Assembly: GCF_008831285.2 (NCBI RefSeq)
Contig: NC_045145.1
Coordinates: 16,570,040 to 16,634,039, forward strand
DNA from: Nymphaea colorata
Lineage: Eukaryota; Streptophyta; Magnoliopsida; Nymphaeales; Nymphaeaceae
Direction of reading: 5' to 3'
Length of the DNA stretch: 64,000 nt
Numbering within the stretch: position 1 is the first letter of the stretch; each line of letters opens with the position of its first letter. Below are positions 15,241-52,270 of this stretch, piece after piece. The notes beneath the pieces are model-generated. The model was not told where the DNA came from, ran no database searches, and saw only the letters and a list, made by a program, of their open reading frames with translations. Both the position numbers and the translations under genes were made by a program.

Positions 15241-15779
15241 AGAGGTTGGAGTGGGAGTAATATCATATCCTGGTGGCCGCCGACTTCACCGTCGATGGAC
15301 CCAGCCGCCCCTTCTCCCGGAAAAGTAAAGGCAGGTTAGCACCGGACCAGCGCTCTCTCTATGGACAACTAAGTAATTTTGGCGATGAAGTTGGGGAGTT
15401 AAAGGGGCGGGGGGAGAAGAAGACGATCACCGAGGCGGGGTCAAAATTTCCGGCTCTGTCTGTCTTCTTCCAGACGTTTCCACCAACTGTCGCTTTCTTT
15501 CTCCAACCGTCCCGCCGGAGTCCGACGAGTCGACGGCCGGGAGGCTCCCCCAGTTGTTAGGTGAGCGTTGGAACCGAGAGAAGAAAATATCGGACGTGAA
15601 TCGGTAGATCTGAAAAAAGGACGAGTTCTCCTCTGGAAGTTGGCCAGGATCGCGCCACGTGGAGCGCTGGGGAACCGTTGGATTGACGCTGGCGCCGGGG
15701 AGAAGCTTCCACGGTTCGGGGGAAAAGTGATGCGGGAAAGGATTTCCCACCTTTCTGCCCGTTTTGTTCCATGGTTCGC

Positions 15780-15797
15780 TTCTGGAAGTTTCTGGAA
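15780..15797. promoter_or_regulatory. perfect four-unit heat-shock element
   Basis: The sequence reads TTCtgGAAgtTTCtgGAA: four alternating 5-bp HSE units with exact spacing. The canonical binding site for trimeric heat-shock factors needs three. It lies about 900 bp before the HSFB1 start codon and just upstream of the presumed start of the long leader. Confidence 0.85.
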
Positions 15798-15845: not shown

Positions 15846-15858
15846 TTCCGGAAAATTC
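15846..15858. promoter_or_regulatory. perfect three-unit heat-shock element
   Basis: TTCcgGAAaaTTC is a complete minimal HSE, 49 bp beyond the four-unit HSE. Their proximity suggests cooperative binding of class A factors, and possibly autorepression by the class B protein. Confidence 0.85.
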
Positions 15859-16382
15859 TTCGTCGAGAGCCTTTTTTTTTTTTTTTTCTCATCCTTCGAG
15901 GCTCATCCGTCCCTTGGGCCCACCTTAATTTTTTGTTTTTCGGAAATTAACATTAAAAAGCCGAATATAGCTGGGGCTCGGGGGAGGAGGAGGAGGAGCA
16001 AAAAGCATCCGTAGGTCAAATCAGGGCTGTTCATTGGGTCGGTCTTCGGGAGCATAAAGCCGTGCATCTTCTTCTTCCATCGAGAGGATTTTTTGGGAAG
16101 GCTGGAGGAGAGGGCGAACGGCCGGAGAGGGAGAGATCTCTGAGGAATTTTGGCGCGTTTCCTCGAAGGAGGAGATCGTGCTAGTTGTTTTGGGGAATTT
16201 GCAGATCCCTGGAAATTCCTTTAAGTCTTGTTCTGTTCTGATTTTTTTTTTTCTTGGGTTGGATTGAATTCATAGCCTTCTTCGGTTTCTTTATCCTTTT
16301 TTTCTGCCTGGATTTTAGATTCGACTGTGAATATCCCGAGATCGAACGCCTCGTTCGGTTGATTTTCTTTGCCTTGTGGAGT

Positions 16383-16448
16383 ATGAGTTTGGGGCGTGGA
16401 GGTAGTTGGGGCGTGATCTTGGGGGGGAAGAGGAAGGGATTTTCTTGA
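16383..16448 (+). CDS. HSFB1 leader uORF1 (21 aa)
   Basis: This is the first ATG I find in the presumed HSFB1 leader; none occurs between about 15900 and 16382. It encodes 21 residues, basic and glycine-rich (ends GGKRKGFS), and stops at TGA 16446-16448. The next uORF begins at the very next base. The same frame is open upstream without an ATG back to a TGA at 16239 and is phenylalanine-rich. Arabidopsis HSFB1/TBF1 also carries two leader uORFs that hold down translation until immune elicitation or starvation. The peptide itself is not one I recognise. Confidence 0.6.
   Translation: MSLGRGGSWGVILGGKRKGFS
16421..16440 (+). promoter_or_regulatory. purine tract in HSFB1 leader (R-motif-like)
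   Basis: An uninterrupted G/A run (GGGGGGGAAGAGGAAGGGA) lies inside uORF1, just before uORF2. Purine-rich R-motifs in 5' leaders are known, from TBF1 and similar immune mRNAs, to promote elicitor-induced translation through poly(A)-binding protein. Function here is inferred from composition and position only. Confidence 0.4.
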
Positions 16449-16589
16449 ATGGAGGAGGGAGCGTCTCGCTCAGCGATACAAGGGGATTGCCGGGATCTCA
16501 TGAATTGCGGCAGGGTCGCCGGTTTCTATTGCTGGGGTTGGGAATTCCTTACGGCTCTTCTCCTCTTTAGTTGTTCCTTCTCCAACTAG
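16449..16589 (+). CDS. HSFB1 leader uORF2, probable conserved-peptide uORF (46 aa)
   Basis: The ATG directly abuts the uORF1 stop (TGAATG). The 46-codon frame ends at TAG 16587-16589, 107 nt before the main ATG. The peptide has an unremarkable N-terminal half and a hydrophobic, aromatic C-terminal half (GFYCWGWEFLTALLLFSC at residues 25-42). Its composition and position match my memory of the conserved uORF peptide of plant HSFB1 leaders, where the encoded peptide represses the main frame. It contains one in-frame internal Met (residue 18). Homology is from memory and unaligned, so confidence is moderate. Confidence 0.7.
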   Translation: MEEGASRSAIQGDCRDLMNCGRVAGFYCWGWEFLTALLLFSCSFSN

Positions 16590-16594
16590 AATAA

Positions 16595-16596
<2 letters not shown>

Positions 16597-16639
<43 letters not shown>
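16597..16639 (+). repeat. (CT)n tract in HSFB1 leader
   Basis: About 21 CT units lie between uORF2 and the main start codon, on the sense strand. A second (CT)n tract (about 16953-16982) begins seven bases after the first splice donor. Confidence 0.9.
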
Positions 16640-16642
<3 letters not shown>

Positions 16643-16696
16643 CTTCCTTTTTTCGCTTTTTTTGTCATTTGGTGGTTGAGCGGAGGAGCGAAAGGA

Positions 16697-16949
16697 ATGG
16701 CTCCTTCCTGTAAGCAGACGGCGAGGGAGTGCGGTGGTGGGGAGGCGCAGAGGTCGGCGCCCGCGCCCTTCTTGACGAAGACGTACCAGTTGGTCGAAGA
16801 CCCGGAGACGGACGACGTCATCTCTTGGGGGGAAAGCGGTGCCACCTTCGTGGTGTGGAAGCCCGCGGAGTTTGCCAGGGACCTACTTCCCAACTACTTC
16901 AAGCACAATAATTTCTCTAGCTTTGTTCGGCAGCTTAACACTTACGTAT

Positions 16950-16985
<36 letters not shown>

Positions 16986-17996
16986 GCTTCTTCTCATTCA
17001 TGGAGAAAGACTTAGAGATGCCATTGGTTCCTTTTGTTTTCTCAAAACTCCATTGAATTTTCCAATCATGCTAGCTTTTGAGGATGGGGATAGATCTCGA
17101 ATTACTGGGGTTGATTTTCGTTTCTCAATCGTGGAGTCTAGTCGACTATGCGATTTCTCTATGATCGATGATCTTATTTAACGGTTTATATACAAAAAAA
17201 AAATGATAGCGCAAATTGTGTCATCCTTCTATTTCCTTCTCTTTTTTTTGCGGGATGAAGAATCATAGAGGTCTTTTCTTATTTATTGCCGGAAAAGAGA
17301 TATCTAACTCTTTCTTTGGAACCCGTCGTACAGGGCTTCCGGAAGATTGTTCCTGATAGGTGGGAATTCACCAACGACAATTTCCGACGAGGAGAGAAAG
17401 CTCTCCTGGCGGAAATCCACCGGAGGAAGGCGCCCTCCGTTCAGAGCCCCGCAGCTGTTTGCGGGACACTCACCCAGCCATCGTCCTCGCCAACAAATTC
17501 CGGCGAGGACCATACTTCCTCGTCCACGTCCTCTTCTGATCCCTCTCGTAGGCAGCAGCAATTATCCGGCGAGGCGTCCCGATTCTCCAACCTCTCGGAT
17601 GAGAACGTGAAGCTGAAGAAGGAGAATCAGTTGCTCAGCTCAGAGCTCGCGCAGACTAGGAAGCAATGCGAGGAGCTCCTCAATGTCCTCTCGGGCTACA
17701 TCAACGTCTCGCCGGAGCACATCAACAAGATAATGCAGGGGGAGGGCATCAGCAAGGTTCAGCCTCTCGCCAGTGAAACAAGCCCAAAAAGGATGGAAGA
17801 AAAGAAGGAAGAAGAAGAAGGGGAGAGTGTGAAGCTTTTCGGTGTCGAGGTGAAGGTGGCCGGAGAAGGGAAAAAAAGGTTCCGGGTGGATGATGTCTTG
17901 GTTCACAAGAGCCAGCCGTTCAAGGAGATGAAAATGGATCTCCAACCCCCATGGATGAAGATATCCTCCCCGAGAGGTAGCAAAGTTTGCAACTAA
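16697..17996 (+). CDS. HSFB1: heat stress transcription factor B-1
   Basis: Class B heat-shock factor, a nuclear DNA-binding repressor/coactivator; the Arabidopsis orthologue is also called TBF1. Exons 16697-16945 and 17334-17996 join in phase 0 and give 303 aa. The DNA-binding domain covers residues 22-115. The intron sits after the recognition-helix motif [11 protein letters not shown], the position conserved across plant HSFs. A serine-rich linker (131-165) precedes the HR-A/B coiled coil (about 172-206), which lacks the class A insertion. The repression motif LFGV is at 251-254, followed by a basic NLS (KKRFR, 263-267). The C terminus SKVCN is the ending I recall for Arabidopsis HSFB1, which favours B1 over B2 or B4. 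The start is the ATG at 16697; an in-frame extension upstream has no ATG. Two heat-shock elements and two uORFs indicate both transcriptional and translational control. Confidence 0.95.
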
Positions 17997-25248: not shown

Positions 25249-27950
25249 ATGCTGTCCGTGCGCCTCCTCGGTGCCTCCAGACCGGCTCTCCAGCCCCGCG
25301 CCGCGCAGATTCCGGCCGCCGAGACGGCCGTGGAGGCGTCGAGGTTGGAGGCCAGAGTGGAGGAGAAGGATGGGTACTGGGTTCTGAAGGAGAAGTTCAG
25401 AGCAGGAATCAATCCCCAAGAGAAGGTAAGCAAATGCGGCCGTTTCAACAGAGACTTTGTTTAGATCGGTTCGATCGGGTATGCTGCTGAAACCATTTTA
25501 ATGAATCGTTACCAAAGACAGAAGGCAAAATGGTGTTCAGAGAATTGAATGGTTTTGTGAAGTACTGCATTAGACAGATGGAATCGTGGAATTTGAAAAT
25601 TCTCTGTGAAACAGGAAAAGCGGATTGTGAAAAGGAAATTGAAGGGGTTCTTTTCTTCCTGCTAACTAATTCTGTTGCTTGCAGGCGAAGCTGGAGAAGG
25701 AGCCAATGAAGCTGCTGATGGAGCGCGGGATCGACGAGCTGGCGGCGATGTCCATGGACGAGGTCGAGGCGTCGAAACTCACCAAGGACGACATAGACAT
25801 GAGGCTCAAGTGGCTCGGCTTCTTCCACAGAAGGAAGCACCAATGTCAGCTCTCTCTCTCTCTCTCTCTCTTATATGGGTTGATGTTACTTGGGCATGTT
25901 CCTATCTTCCATTCTCGTTTCCATGGAATGTTTGTTCTTTGTGATGGAACACAAATCACGATGAGATGAGAACGCAGACGTTCCAGAGACATGAACAGCT
26001 CACCGCGTTCTGGCGCCGTAATCAAACAATTGATAAGAGTATAGCAATGCGTGAAAGTCTAATTTTGAGGCCGGAAATTGCAGATGGCCGATTCATGGTG
26101 AGGCTGAAGCTGCCGAACGGGGTCACGACCAGTGCCCAGACGCGCTACCTCGCCGGCGTCGTGGCCGGCTACGGTTCCGAAGGCTGCGCCGATGTGACGA
26201 CCCGGCAGAATTGGCAGATCCGGGGCGTGACGCTTCAAGACGCTCCGGCCATCCTGGCGGGCCTGGAGGAGGTGGGCCTCAACAGCCTGCAGAGCGGCAT
26301 GGATAACGTCCGGAACCCGGTCGGTAACCCGCTAGCGGGCATCGACCCGCACGAGGTAGTCGACACCAGGGCCTACACCAACCTGCTCTCTCAATTCATA
26401 ACCGCTAACGGGAAGGGCAACCCTTCCGTAACAAACTTGTAGGTCCTCTGCCACTGTTCATTCGTTTACGTTGTGTTGAGTGGATAGACTGAGGTGCTCA
26501 AGGGTTGATTGGACACAGGCCGAGGAAATGGAACGTGTGCGTGGTGGGCTCCCATGACCTCTACGAGCATCCCCACATAAACGACCTCGCCTACGTTCCG
26601 GCCGTGAAGGACGGCCGCTTCGGCTTCAATCTCCTCGTGGGAGGCTTCTTCAGCCCCAAGCGCTGCGCCGAGGCGGTGCCGCTAGATGCTTGGGTCGCCG
26701 GAGACGACGTCATCCCGGCCTGCAGAGCTGTGCTCGAGGCATACAGGGATCTTGGCAGCAGGGGGAACCGCCAAAAAACGCGGATGATGTGGCTTATAGA
26801 CGAGCTCGTAAGTTGTCGCTCAAATTTCCTCTAATTGCAGAAGAAAAATCCTTGCTGGCTTGCCAAGCATGGTTAGTGGAAAACTGTTCATGATTTGCCG
26901 TGAAATTTTCAATCTCATGACAATGAGCAACGCAACTGATCTGAAACTTTCTCGTCTTCTTCTTTTGTTACCCATTTTAGTGTTTGTAGCGGTATCGCTT
27001 TTTACGGGTTTTCTTTGTCAAGAAACTGAAAATTTTATGCACCTCTCGGTCATTGTCATTTTGAATTGAGACCGCATCACTTTGCCTCGTGAAACAGGCA
27101 GAAAACGCCTCTGTGATCTTCAAGTGAATTTCTATTAATCGCTTGATGATTTGTGCTGGCAATGCGCTGAAACTTTGATGTGAATTAGGGAGTTGAAGGA
27201 TTCAGAGCAGAGGTTGAAAAGAGAATGCCTGCCGGGGAGTTGTTAGCGAGGGCAGCCGAGGAAGACATGGTCGACAAGAACTGGGTTAGAAGAGAGTACC
27301 TGGGCGTTCACCCTCAGAAGCAAAAAGGACTGAACTTTGTTGGTCTCCATGTGCCGGTGGGCCGCCTCCAGGCCGACGACATGTTCGAGCTGGCACGCCT
27401 GGCAGACACCTACGGGACAGGGGAGCTCAGGCTCACAGTGGAGCAGAACATCATACTTCCCAATGTCAAGGACTCTGATCTTGATTCTCTGTTGCAAGAG
27501 AGGCTCTTGAAAGAGAGGCTATCACCATTCCCTGGTTCGCTGATGCGGACGTTGGTGGCATGCACCGGAAGTCAATTCTGCGGCCAAGCCATAATCGAGA
27601 CGAAGGCGCGGGCATTGAAGGTAACAGAGGAGCTGGAGAAGAGGGTAACTGTAACCCGGCCTGTGCGGATGCACTGGACCGGGTGTCCCAACAGCTGCGG
27701 ACAGGTGCAAGTGGCTGACATTGGGTTCATGGGCTGCATGACAAGGGATGAAAATGGCAAGGTGTGTGAAGGTGTGGATGTCTACTTGGGTGGTAGGATA
27801 GGCTCCAATTCTCACCTTGGGGATCTTATCATGAAAGGGGTACCCTGCAAAGATTTGGTTCCCTTGGTTGAGGAAATTTTGGTGGAGCACTTGGGTGCAA
27901 TCCGCAAGAAACCAGATGAAGAAGATGATATGGAGGAAGGGGAAGAATGA
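25249..27950 (+). CDS. NIR: ferredoxin-nitrite reductase, chloroplastic
   Basis: Reduces nitrite to ammonium with six electrons from ferredoxin in the plastid stroma, the second step of nitrate assimilation. Exons 25249-25425, 25685-25844, 26084-26438, 26519-26807 and 27189-27950 join in phase and give 580 aa, close to the usual length of about 590. Residues 1 to about 30 are Ala/Arg/Ser-rich with no acidic residue before Glu25, consistent with a short plastid transit peptide. The mature part starts near the conserved EEKDGYWVLKEKF. Two ferredoxin-like half-domains and siroheme/4Fe-4S repeats follow, including the invariant TRQNWQIRG and NPVGNPLAGIDP. Cluster and siroheme ligands are C452, C458, C493 and C497, in CX5C and CX3C arrangement (CTGSQFC, CPNSC). 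The plastid type is favoured over sulfite reductase by the near-identity of conserved blocks to plant NiR. Coding GC is much higher than in the flanks. An NRE-like site upstream fits nitrate induction. Confidence 0.97.
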
Positions 27951-40933: not shown

Positions 40934-46634
<5,701 letters not shown>

Positions 46635-47859: not shown

Positions 47860-50800
47860 TTAATCTTCATCCAGATGTGATGTTGATGTATATTTATAGA
47901 TTGTAGCTAAAATTCTCTCCTTGTCCCTTGTTGGAAATGCTTCCACCAAGTTGCCACCCTTGTAGAAGTGAAACAGAGGAACTGCCTGGACATGCAAAAC
48001 TTATGATGAAATTTGTAGCAATAGCAGGTCCATATGCTACAAGATCAAAGTTTCTTGCAACCAATTACAGCAAAAGAAAGAAACAGATGACCTGATAGGA
48101 GCCTTTCTTTTCAAGTTATTAAAACTAGCATATTCTTTTAATTAAACAACAGCAAAGGATCATGAATGAAGATATGTTCTGTTAAAAACATCAAATTTGT
48201 AAGCCACATTAATAGCTGCACAAACTTTCTCTTACGAGTTAGGACTAGTCCCAAGCTCACTGGATCCAACTTTGCTTATCTGATAAACATGGTCTCATAA
48301 CCAATTCCTTCAACAACAACAAGGACTAACCAATCAGAACTTCATTATGTACTCTACAAGGTTAATAAGCTTGAAAAGATTGTAGAAAACCTTGACCAAA
48401 TTAGAATAGCTTTTGCTAACCTTTCTATTGTTCAGCAAGGATGTGAACGGCATATTTTAGTGAAAGTGATGCAACCATTTTGAGTGGCTTTGTGTTGTTG
48501 GTAGTGACATCTAGCAAGATGAGATTCACAAACCAAATGACAAAGACAAATAACATGAAGAAGGAACAGGAAAGGATGGTTAATCAGTTAGGAGCAAAGG
48601 AAAATACTTCGACCAAACTTAATTGATCCATGAAAGGTACATCCTCATTACATAATATTGAAAGCATTTCAAGGTCAGAAACAATATTGGATCATATATT
48701 TGAAGTGTGAAACATCCTTCAAAGAACTGAAAAACCTACTTTAAGGTTTAATTGTTTCAGTCAGACAATCCAACATGAAATAAAAAGCTATCAGCACAAC
48801 GTATTTCTTCCATTTCATCCACATCGTCACAAAAACTGCAACTTGGTGAATGACATCCTTCGCTAGCTTGGAAAAAAGGAAAATTGTATTTAAGAAAAGA
48901 GGGACTGAGAACAAGTTTCTTAGCTAGGAGGAAATAAAATGAAATGTGGGATCATGAAAAAGGATGGGAAAAAGAAAGAAAAGAAAGAAGGTAATACAAT
49001 TTTCTATTGGCGTTATAAGTAGGCAGACTTAATATTCTTTTCCTTCTTCAGAAGTTCCATGTTCTTGTGTAATTATGAACGTCCCTGAAGTCACATGCAT
49101 AGCAGCAGCAGGGTGATTCCTGTTGACTAAGCTGTCAGAGTATCATTACCAAATATATCATGTTTATAACAGAATCCCATTAGTTGGTGTTCTACATAAA
49201 GTCGTAGTGGTCTCTTACTATGTTCTGCAAGTGGAAGTCAATTACTCCTGATTCATAGCAAAATCAGCAAAATTAATTCACACACTCCCAGACAAAAATA
49301 AGCTTGTTTGAATAGATTCCTGTTTTCTGTTTCCAAAAGAACAGGACAGAATATCAGCACAGGTTAATGTGCAATTATCTGGACACCAGTCTTGGTCAGT
49401 TGCAGGGTAAACTGAGGAGGGAGAAGAAAAAGATACAAAAGAAAGACAGTTTAAAAAGTAATCAGTTGCAAAAATTACAGTGAAGGAACTAGGACAAGTG
49501 AAAATAAAAGTGTATGCAACTAACAGGGAAACCATTGCTACTATAGGTATCACATGCCAGTACCAAAATGCCTGACATCTTTAATCAAGAATTTGTTTTC
49601 TAAGAGACTAAGACAACATACCCTGATCTTAAGTCGTTCAGCAACCTCTGATTCCTCATCATACTCATCAATAACCTGCATGAATTTACGAAAGCAAAAA
49701 CTTCTTATTCCCTTCAAACGAGTGCCGAGTGCCGTAAAAACTTGTAATTTGTAATATGGACAGGGTTTTCTGGAAATGTACTAAGCTCAGGATGGTTGCT
49801 AACCTAGCAATGTTACTCATATCCTCTACACAGAATGGATGTAGACCAAGTTTTGAGGAGGTTCAACTACAGATTGATATAAAAAGTAACTCAAAATCTA
49901 GAAAATCCAACTTAACTATACTGAGACCATCTAACTTCATTAATCTGGACAAAAGATATCAAAGAAGGCAAATGACAGCATGTTCTGCCTGTAAGTAAGG
50001 ACAAAATTTCGACTTGGGCATATACATGAACTACAGGAGTGAGGGTCCCTTTAACCAAATCATGCAACTTATGTCATTTCTTATGACAAATTTGACACTT
50101 CAGAATATTTATAAGGTCACTCTAATTCCTATTCGTATGCAAGCATTTGGAAGATATGCACGGTTCCATGAACCTGCCCCAAATAATGGGCCAGATTCAT
50201 GGAACACTAGATCGTTCTATTAGCCAAACAACCCCAAAAGTTTACTAGATCCAAAAGGCTTGCTGTTACAGGGCGAAGGAAAGAAAACTTGAGATAAGAG
50301 AGCCAAATATGGTTCAGATGAATAAGAATAGGCCATTACATTCTATATGTTTATAAATATACATGGCCCAGGCGGGGCATCACATAGAATGTAAAAGTTT
50401 GTCTAACAGCCCCTTGGACATCACTTACATTATGCTTCAAAAAGATAACTGAATCATCTCTGCCTCCAGACCCTTTACATAGTTTTGAGAACCCCTGTTC
50501 TATGTACTTGCAGCTTCCGCATGATGTTCGGTAGAAATCAACAACAACAAGAGAATCAGTAGCTTTTGCCTTCTCTAATATTCTAGAAAACTCTGCATCT
50601 GTCTTGAATTCTCTCACACATTCAACAGGGCAAATACTATCATCTTCATCTACTTCACATGGTTCCATTTTATTTAAATCTTTCAGTCCTTCATAACCTC
50701 CACCATGGAATGAACAATTGCTTAGCATTTTCAGTTTCTTGCTATCTCTGAGAGGGAAAACAGTGGATGTGCTTAACAATAAAATTTTAGTTCGTCTCCT

Positions 50801-50917
50801 GCTTCCTTCATCAAGCCAACAAGTTCTTGCATGACTGAACCTTGAATAGTGCAATTGAACAGAAGCCTTTGCAAAGGCAAATGGCTCTTGAGAATAAACC
50901 AGACCTTGCCTTTGCAT
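47860..50917 (-). CDS. thioredoxin-like 4, chloroplastic
   Basis: Plastid thioredoxin-fold protein. Three coding exons on the minus strand, in phase: 50917-50429, 49675-49622 and 47985-47860, giving 222 aa. Residues 1 to about 60 are basic, Ser/Arg-rich and poor in acid, like a transit peptide. The conserved block before the fold is CPVECVREF (96-104). The fold begins with SLVVVDFYRTSCGSCKYIEQ. The redox site is C133-G-S-C136, with the usual Trp of WCGPC replaced by Ser. The cis-proline is P184 in AVPLFHFYK. The EAFPTRDKERI tail is as in Arabidopsis At1g07700-type proteins, by recall. Upstream Met codons in other frames (51005, 50973) do not continue into the fold. At least one 5' UTR exon probably lies further upstream, possibly near 52.5-52.6 kb. 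Reductive activity is inferred from the intact CxxC. Confidence 0.9.
50160..50215. mobile_element. MITE-like fragment in thioredoxin-like intron
   Basis: Contains CGGTTCCATGAACCTGCCCC and GGGCCAGATTCATGGAACAC words arranged as a rough inverted repeat. It is similar to the element at 8873-8979. It sits in the first coding-region intron of the minus-strand gene. Confidence 0.3.
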
Positions 50918-52270
50918 CTTTCAATGCCGATCCAGAAAATGTCAAAGAAAAGGGTGTTAATTTTGTAAAACATGTAGCTGCTGTCAAAGAAGGAAAAAGA
51001 TGCAATTAATTAATGCCTCTTTTCAGAAGAAAAATACCCACTTGCCAATGAGAGGGAATGCCCTTCGGTTTCATTCCCACATTGTGTTATTTAGTTTTTC
51101 CTGCTAATGTAAGACATCATCTAATCACCCTCGTATGAAATACATAGATAAGTATATAGATAACAAGAAGATCACGAAAGGAAGAATCCCTACATGGGAA
51201 GAATCTAGAAATGTCTAGGTGCTAAATGGTGGAATTGTCTGCAGATTATAATCTAGAGAAGTAAAGGGCCTAAAAGATTTATGAGCCCATAAGGTTCAAA
51301 TAACTGAAACTAAGATGATGAAAATATAACAATTTCAAGTATCCATATGTTTAGAAGGTGCATTAAAGTGTAAAGTCCCGCAACAAAATAAATAGCATCT
51401 CACACGTCCATGCAATTAATTTATTCATACACCTCCTGTTGTCAAACTGACTGCCCTCATCTCTCATATGGTGACACCCAGCACAAAAATGTATTTCTTA
51501 TGTCCTATTCATCTAAAATGTTGTTTGCACATGTTCATCTCCAAGTTTAAATTAGAATGAAAAGAGAATTATGTGTATAATCCTATTTACTTGCGTCTTT
51601 CATGCTGTCTTCATTTTAGAAGTTTTGAATGCATTGTCTGTCCGACATTTTTTCTGCTCGTTGATGAGGATTTATCATACTACTACTAAGTGTAGGATCA
51701 TATGCGTTACTACAAAGTCATTAAGTCTATCGAAGTTAAAAAAGATGCCATTAGTTAAACGTGATGTTGGTTTTTGGTTCGTAAGCATTCTCAATCTACC
51801 ACCGTTTTGTAAAATGCATTGTTACACTTAATTCTAGGCCCCAACAGATTTCTTGCTCTTGACGGAATTTGATGGTGGAACTCCCAGTCAAATAAAGAAA
51901 AGGCTATTAATTTACATGCCATTGAATCTATTAAGCTAGTCCTTATTCCTAAGTAGTACGCTTATATCGTTGATCACAGAATTCTGGATCATCCTCCGCT
52001 TGTCAAAACTTCAAGACACATTTATTCCCATCAAATTGTTGGACCAGCTAACTAAGGCTTGATCTGTTATTGCTGAAACTATAGAAAATTGGGGTACCTC
52101 TTTGATTCCACTCACCAATATCCACTCTTAAAAGGACACTTAAAGTCTTAAACCAAAGACTAAAAGAAACTTAGAACAGGGGAGAATGAAAAACCTTCCT
52201 TTCTTATATCTTCTTTCATCTTCAGTTCACCATTCATATAAACACATCCAGAATTTGACATACACACACT

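What the first reader, a model, noticed from the sequence alone, without database searches (positions are those of the whole stretch)
16383..16589. Two back-to-back uORFs (TGA|ATG junction) in the HSFB1 leader
The first two ATG-initiated frames in the leader are a 21-codon uORF whose TGA abuts, with no spacing, the ATG of a 46-codon uORF. The second encodes an aromatic/hydrophobic C-terminal half (GFYCWGWEFLTALLLFSC) that looks like the conserved HSFB1 uORF peptide. The zero-base junction favours termination-coupled reinitiation or strict scanning choice. Arabidopsis TBF1/HSFB1 is the textbook immune gene controlled by two uORFs, so the arrangement appears ancient, with a possibly lineage-specific junction.
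Basis: partly seen in the sequence, partly recalled or inferred. Interest (0 to 1): 0.75.

Follow-up and report, generated by a model that had tools for sequence, protein, structure and literature searches.

The report
Conserved uORF pair before HSFB1
The start of this plant heat-shock-factor gene carries two tiny reading frames back to back; the second looks like an already known conserved control peptide, and the back-to-back join is probably a local accident.

Summary
uORF1 is 16383-16448 (21 aa, TGA) and uORF2 is 16449-16589 (46 aa, TAG); they abut with no spacing. The main ORF (16697-16946 joined to 17335-17996, 303 aa) has an HSF DNA-binding domain (PF00447, E 3.2e-31). The uORF2 C-terminal half aligns 17/20 with the Arabidopsis TBF1/HSFB1 uORF2 peptide, which I recalled and did not retrieve. 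In the 408 Mb own genome that recalled peptide hits here (E 1.2e-6) and next at chance level (E 9.5). uORF2 is therefore most likely a member of the known conserved-peptide uORF family HG18 (paper passages). uORF1 shows no similarity to the recalled Arabidopsis uORF1 and has 1 Phe against 4 reported. The zero-base junction is not remarkable by itself: 52 of 2076 short frames in this window do the same. Its conservation could not be tested. The genome is probably Nymphaea colorata (inference). Verdict: new member of a known kind, modest interest.

The parts
15780..15797 (.). four-unit heat-shock element TTCnnGAAnnTTCnnGAA, the only four-unit match in the window
   Evidence: pattern scan; sequence; function not tested
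15966..15971 (+). TATA-like motif (first of two; the other is at 16053)
   Evidence: pattern scan; weak
16053..16058 (+). TATA-like motif CATAAA
   Evidence: pattern scan; weak
16383..16448 (+). uORF1, 21 aa, stop TGA at 16446-16448
   Evidence: no similarity to recalled Arabidopsis uORF1
16421..16439 (+). 19-nt purine run inside uORF1, R-motif-like
   Evidence: 15 runs of at least 19 nt on the + strand of the window, so weak
16449..16589 (+). uORF2, 46 aa, stop TAG; HG18-type conserved-peptide uORF
16500..16589 (+). internal in-frame ATG of uORF2; a 29-aa frame that keeps the whole conserved core
16521..16574 (+). conserved core GFYCWGWEFLTALLLFSC
   Evidence: 17 of 18 identical to the recalled Arabidopsis core
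16597..16638 (+). (CT)21 run between uORF2 and the main ATG
   Evidence: 12 such runs of at least 16 nt in the window
16697..16946 (+). HSFB1 main ORF, exon 1
17335..17996 (+). HSFB1 main ORF, exon 2, ending SKVCN

Best explanation
This is the 5' leader of an HSFB1 (TBF1) orthologue, and uORF2 is its HG18 conserved-peptide uORF. Most likely some scanning ribosomes pass uAUG1 and initiate at uAUG2, or at the in-frame AUG at 16500. They make the hydrophobic peptide, which acts on the ribosome that makes it and holds down translation of the main ORF. Stress (heat, immune signalling, eIF2alpha phosphorylation) lowers this block and lets HSFB1 be made. uORF1 probably only sets how many ribosomes reach uAUG2: a ribosome that ends at 16448 is too late for the abutting AUG and can at best restart at 16500 (51 nt on) or at the main AUG (248 nt on). 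Shown here: the anatomy, the main-ORF family and the peptide match to a recalled sequence. Taken from Arabidopsis literature: repression by uORF2 and its release. Inferred: that the same holds in this plant, action through the nascent peptide, and the role of uORF1.
For: Main ORF with PF00447, E 3.2e-31. uORF2 residues 23-42 align 17/20 with the recalled Arabidopsis peptide; genome-wide that peptide gives E 1.2e-6 here and 9.47 next. The window's own 29-aa C-terminal peptide occurs once in the genome. HG18 is described for At4g36990 and rice (passages), as the second of two uORFs with a 22-aa conserved segment (passages), and among CPuORFs with sequence-dependent control (passage). Repression and release in Arabidopsis: passages. 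uORF2 has 4 Phe, as reported for Arabidopsis (sequence).
Against: The Arabidopsis comparator is recalled, not retrieved; no other plant leader was compared and no Ka/Ks computed. No transcript or ribosome data for this gene. uORF2 has four residues after the core and a diverged N-terminal half, so the stop is not where it is in the recalled Arabidopsis peptide. The structure downstream of uAUG2 is not beyond shuffles (z -1.13; 15 of 103 leader windows as stable). uORF1 does not match its Arabidopsis counterpart.
Confidence: 0.8

Rival explanations
1. One reading: termination at the uORF1 TGA feeds ribosomes directly into the abutting uAUG2 (termination-coupled reinitiation), so the junction itself is the device.
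For: The two codons abut and share a frame by necessity; uORF1 is short, which is compatible with 40S retention (recalled).
Against: The junction type has a base rate of 2.5% in the window (52 of 2076), and another HSF gene of this genome has such a junction upstream (L038). Zero spacing is unfavourable for ordinary reinitiation (recalled). No conservation of the junction is shown.
Confidence: 0.08
2. The main transcripts start downstream of the uORFs (for example near the CT run at 16597-16638), so the pair is rarely in the mRNA.
For: CT-rich stretches occur near plant start sites (recalled). Start-site switches that drop uORFs occur in plant immunity (passages).
Against: Heat-shock element at 15780, TATA-like motifs at 15966 and 16053 and the long ATG-free stretch fit a start upstream of 16383. 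CT/GA runs are frequent in this window (12 of at least 16 nt). A core so close to the recalled Arabidopsis one would not be expected to survive if untranslated.
Confidence: 0.06
3. The core is kept as RNA (sequence or structure), not as peptide.
For: A hairpin downstream of uAUG2 is reported to matter in Arabidopsis TBF1 (passages); the 100 nt after uAUG2 are the most stable of those after the three leader ATGs.
Against: The match is at the peptide level and ends with the frame. The 100 nt from 16500, which hold the core, fold no better than shuffles (z 0.98).
Confidence: 0.05
4. Chance: the ORFs are random and the peptide resemblance is accidental.
For: ORF length (P 0.62) and junction (2.5%) alone are compatible with chance.
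Against: Peptide match E 1.2e-6 for the whole genome, in the leader of the expected gene.
Confidence: 0.01

Closest known systems
HG18 conserved-peptide uORF of HSFB1/TBF1 (At4g36990; rice LOC_Os09g28354)
   Same: Second of two leader uORFs of an HSFB1 gene; core peptide 17 of 18 identical to the recalled Arabidopsis core; 4 Phe
   Different: 46 aa against 36 (recalled), diverged first half, four residues after the core, an internal in-frame ATG at 16500 absent from the recalled Arabidopsis peptide
Arabidopsis TBF1 two-uORF cassette
   Same: Two uORFs in the same order before the same kind of gene
   Different: uORF1 is not Phe-rich (1 of 21) and not similar to the recalled uORF1; the spacing of the Arabidopsis pair was not found in the passages read
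GCN4-type serial uORF reinitiation
   Same: Several short uORFs before a stress transcription factor; TBF1 release depends on GCN2 (passages)
   Different: None of the GCN4 uORFs is conserved (passage), here the uORF2 peptide is; reinitiation was not tested here

Membership tests
HSFB1 (class-B heat stress transcription factor) | HSF-type DNA-binding domain | tested here: met
   PF00447, E 3.2e-31, residues 25-114
HSFB1 (class-B heat stress transcription factor) | LFGV repressor motif near the C-terminus and HSFB1-like end | tested here: met
   KLFGV and SKVCN read in the translation; the motifs as class marks are recalled; no tree was built
HG18 CPuORF | Closed uORF in the leader of an HSFB1 gene, separate from the main ORF | tested here: met
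   Stop at 16589, 107 nt before the main ATG
HG18 CPuORF | Conserved C-terminal peptide segment | tested here: met
   17/20 with the recalled Arabidopsis peptide, genome-wide E 1.2e-6; comparator recalled
HG18 CPuORF | Purifying selection on the peptide (low Ka/Ks) across orders | not testable with these tools
   No other plant leaders available; the C10 pseudogene does not align in the leader
HG18 CPuORF | Sequence-dependent repression of the main ORF | not testable with these tools
   Needs reporters; reported for HG18 (passage)
TBF1-type uORF pair | Four Phe in each uORF | tested here: not met
   uORF2 has 4, uORF1 has 1 (sequence); criterion
TBF1-type uORF pair | Stable structure downstream of uAUG2 | tested here: inconclusive
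   -34.7 kcal/mol per 100 nt, z -1.13; 15 of 103 leader windows as stable
TBF1-type uORF pair | Purine-rich R-motif overlapping or downstream of the uORFs | tested here: inconclusive
   19-nt purine run in uORF1, but 15 such runs on the + strand of the window

The most novel reading that the evidence does not exclude
In this lineage the abutting uORF1 has become a bypass switch. Ribosomes that translate uORF1 cannot use uAUG2, so core peptide made from uAUG2 (46 aa) and from the AUG at 16500 (29 aa) reports two different scanning histories, and the supply of eIF2 decides among uAUG2, the AUG at 16500 and the main AUG, giving a graded HSFB1 switch in an early-diverging angiosperm.
Probability: 0.08. 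Interest if true: 0.55.

Novelty: new member of a known kind. Interest (0 to 1): 0.25.

Why it matters
If the genome is Nymphaea colorata, as inferred, the HG18 peptide was already attached to HSFB1 before the Nymphaeales split from most other flowering plants, while uORF1 is not recognisably shared with Arabidopsis. That would separate the conserved part of this heat and immune switch (the uORF2 peptide) from the changeable part (uORF1 and the spacing), and offer a distant natural variant for testing which residues and which spacing matter.

Tried and rejected
Rejected: uORF2 length as evidence (P 0.62 in shuffled leaders). The hairpin at 16340-16360 before uAUG1 is ordinary: one hairpin of at least 9 bp observed in 16085-16696, 2.1 expected in 200 mononucleotide shuffles. 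A leader intron is not clearly supported: one donor-like site at 15559 and four acceptor-like sites. Rfam gave no match at gathering score in the window. The sigma-70-type promoter scan gave none and is not suited to plants.

Led nowhere: a text search for the peptide letters and CPuORF49 found 0 papers. Scans of viral and of prokaryote contigs for the back-translated core gave 0 hits each, as expected for a plant element. The HSFB1 pseudogene on contig C10 aligns by DNA only inside the coding region and intron (68% over 1121 columns, window 16738-17810), so it gives no leader to compare. A search of the own genome with PF00447 did not complete.

Species: the collection gives no name. 407.8 Mb, contigs C1-C14 of 12.6-44.0 Mb, then C15 of 7.3 Mb, C16 of 1.3 Mb and three further sampled contigs under 40 kb (C17, C20, C50), and my own sorting of HSF genes by eye into one intact B1, two B2-like and three B4-like fit Nymphaea colorata (409 Mb, 2n=28, passage; HSF row, whose column order I inferred because the header was not shown). 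C15 and C16, and 783 contigs against 804 scaffolds in the paper, are not explained by this.

Full report
What is there. On the + strand the window holds a gene whose coding sequence is 16697-16946 joined to 17335-17996 (303 aa, in-frame join at a GTATGT donor and a CAG acceptor). It has an HSF DNA-binding domain (PF00447, E 3.2e-31), relatives among solved HSF domains (18 distinct sequences at E up to 0.001), a KLFGV motif and a C-terminal SKVCN; the last two I know from memory as class-B and HSFB1 marks, and no tree was built. Three ATGs lie in 15991-16696: 16383, 16449 and 16500. The first opens a 21-aa frame ending with TGA at 16446-16448. The second follows with no spacing and opens a 46-aa frame ending with TAG at 16587-16589. 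A zero gap means that uORF1 and uORF2 share a frame by necessity; it is not the main frame.

Chance. The ATG-to-ATG gap before uORF1 is 612 nt, the longest in the window on either strand; for 15990-16382 zero ATGs occurred in 0.4% of 2000 dinucleotide shuffles, for 16085-16382 in 1.35%, while over 15990-16696 with its three ATGs the depletion is weak (7.0 expected, P 0.055). A 46-aa ORF occurs by chance in 62% of shuffled leaders, and 52 of 2076 frames of 5-100 codons in the window have an ATG right after their stop, nested starts counted apart. Neither the length nor the junction is special by itself. The peptide is. My recalled Arabidopsis TBF1 uORF2 peptide aligns 17/20 with residues 23-42 of uORF2. 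In six-frame translation of the window the recalled 18-aa core scores 104 here and 25 at the next places. In the whole 408 Mb genome the recalled peptide gives E 1.2e-6 here and 9.47 at the next place. The recalled sequence agrees with the published statement that each Arabidopsis uORF contains four Phe (passages), but it was not retrieved from any source; a text search for its letters found no paper.

What it is. HSFB1 uORF2 is a known conserved-peptide uORF, homology group 18. Hayden and Jorgensen 2007 (PMC2075485, passages) list At4g36990 and rice LOC_Os09g28350/28354. Jorgensen and Dorantes-Acosta 2012 (PMC3426882, passages) call it the second of two uORFs, with a highly conserved 22-aa segment. 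ESUCA 2020 (PMC7106846, passage) counts HG18 among CPuORFs with sequence-dependent control. A 2016 HSF review (PMC4746267, passage) reports repression of AtHSFB1 by uORF2, not uORF1, released by heat, and repression of TBF1 by both with uORF2 epistatic; HSFB1 and TBF1 are one gene, so these two statements do not fully agree. Release on infection depends on GCN2 (PMC6687712, passages). PMC10499604 (passages) reports that ribosome occupancy on TBF1 uORF2 falls on elf18 and that a structure downstream of uAUG2 promotes its use. A review (PMC11062462, passages) adds R-motifs as internal entry sites and galactinol as an effector of the peptide. The window element is, on this evidence, a further member of the group.

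What differs. uORF1 here has one Phe in 21 residues and no alignment to my recalled Arabidopsis uORF1, so 'two Phe-rich uORFs' is not met. uORF2 is longer (46 against 36 aa, recalled), with a diverged N-terminal half and four residues (SFSN) after the core. The 100 nt from uAUG2 are the most stable of those from the three leader ATGs (-34.7 against -25.1 and -21.1 kcal/mol) but not beyond shuffles (z -1.13), and 15 of 103 leader windows are as stable. A 19-nt purine run lies in uORF1, but 15 such runs occur on the + strand of the window. Start contexts, read: uAUG1 -3 A/+4 A, uAUG2 -3 T/+4 G, AUG 16500 -3 C/+4 A; main AUG -3 G/+4 G.

How it probably works. Shown: anatomy, gene family, peptide match. 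Reported for Arabidopsis: uORF2 lowers HSFB1 output and stress lifts this. Inferred: ribosomes that leak past uAUG1 start at uAUG2 or at 16500 and make the core, which hinders translation of the main ORF. By general knowledge of reinitiation (recalled) the junction would keep ribosomes that have just finished uORF1 from using uAUG2; the next AUGs are 51 and 248 nt away. That makes uORF1 more likely a modest modulator or shield than a feeder.

Transcript start. No transcript data were available. A four-unit heat-shock element at 15780, the only four-unit match in 64 kb, TATA-like motifs at 15966 and 16053, and the ATG-free stretch point to a start near 15995-16085 and hence a leader of roughly 610-700 nt holding all three ATGs. 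This is inference; an alternative start downstream of the uORFs is not excluded, and such switches occur in plant immunity (PMC9252474, passages).

Relatives in the same genome. The 29-aa C-terminal uORF peptide occurs once. The main protein gave 51 matches in the genome (58 candidates scored). On contig C10 there is a degraded HSFB1 copy with in-frame stops (68% over 1121 alignment columns, window 16738-17810) whose leader does not align. I looked at the 700 nt before six other HSF genes (L035-L040; their transcript starts are unknown). One of the six, L038, has a short frame (15 or 14 aa, two nested starts) whose stop is followed directly by an ATG, so the junction type is not peculiar to HSFB1 in this genome.

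Species and age. Size, 14 large contigs plus two smaller ones and HSF class counts as I sorted them by eye fit Nymphaea colorata (409 Mb, 2n=28, passage; HSF row with column order inferred). I take this as likely, not proven. If so, HG18 is older than the split of Nymphaeales from most other angiosperms. ESUCA sorted its hits into 13 plant categories (passage), so this range may already be in its supplement, which I could not read; I claim no priority.

Verdict.

Noticed in passing
L034 4675-5755 (G000:C10 about 16,261.2-16,262.3 kb): Degraded second copy of HSFB1 with in-frame stops and a retained intron region; its leader no longer aligns to the window.
   Followed up: partly
L038, about 104 to 56 nt upstream of the putative HSF start: Another HSF gene has a 14/15-aa upstream frame whose stop is followed directly by an ATG (7-aa frame), the same zero-gap type of junction.
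   Followed up: no
15780-15797: Perfect four-unit heat-shock element upstream of HSFB1, the only one in 64 kb, with a three-unit element at 15846; suggests heat-inducible, possibly self-regulated transcription.
   Followed up: no
25945-27947, 41859-43704, 50354-50920 (-): Neighbouring genes: nitrite/sulfite reductase exons, a cytochrome P450 (CYP707A-like by memory) and a thioredoxin-like gene (Pfam). From memory, rice HSFB1 also lies near a CYP707A gene; not tested.
   Followed up: no
G000 contigs C281, C767, C370, C536, C71, C120, C386, C524, C464: Nine small contigs carry weak HSF-domain matches (28-43% identity, eight of nine with stops inside). They could be foreign DNA in the assembly or divergent pseudogenes.
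   Followed up: no
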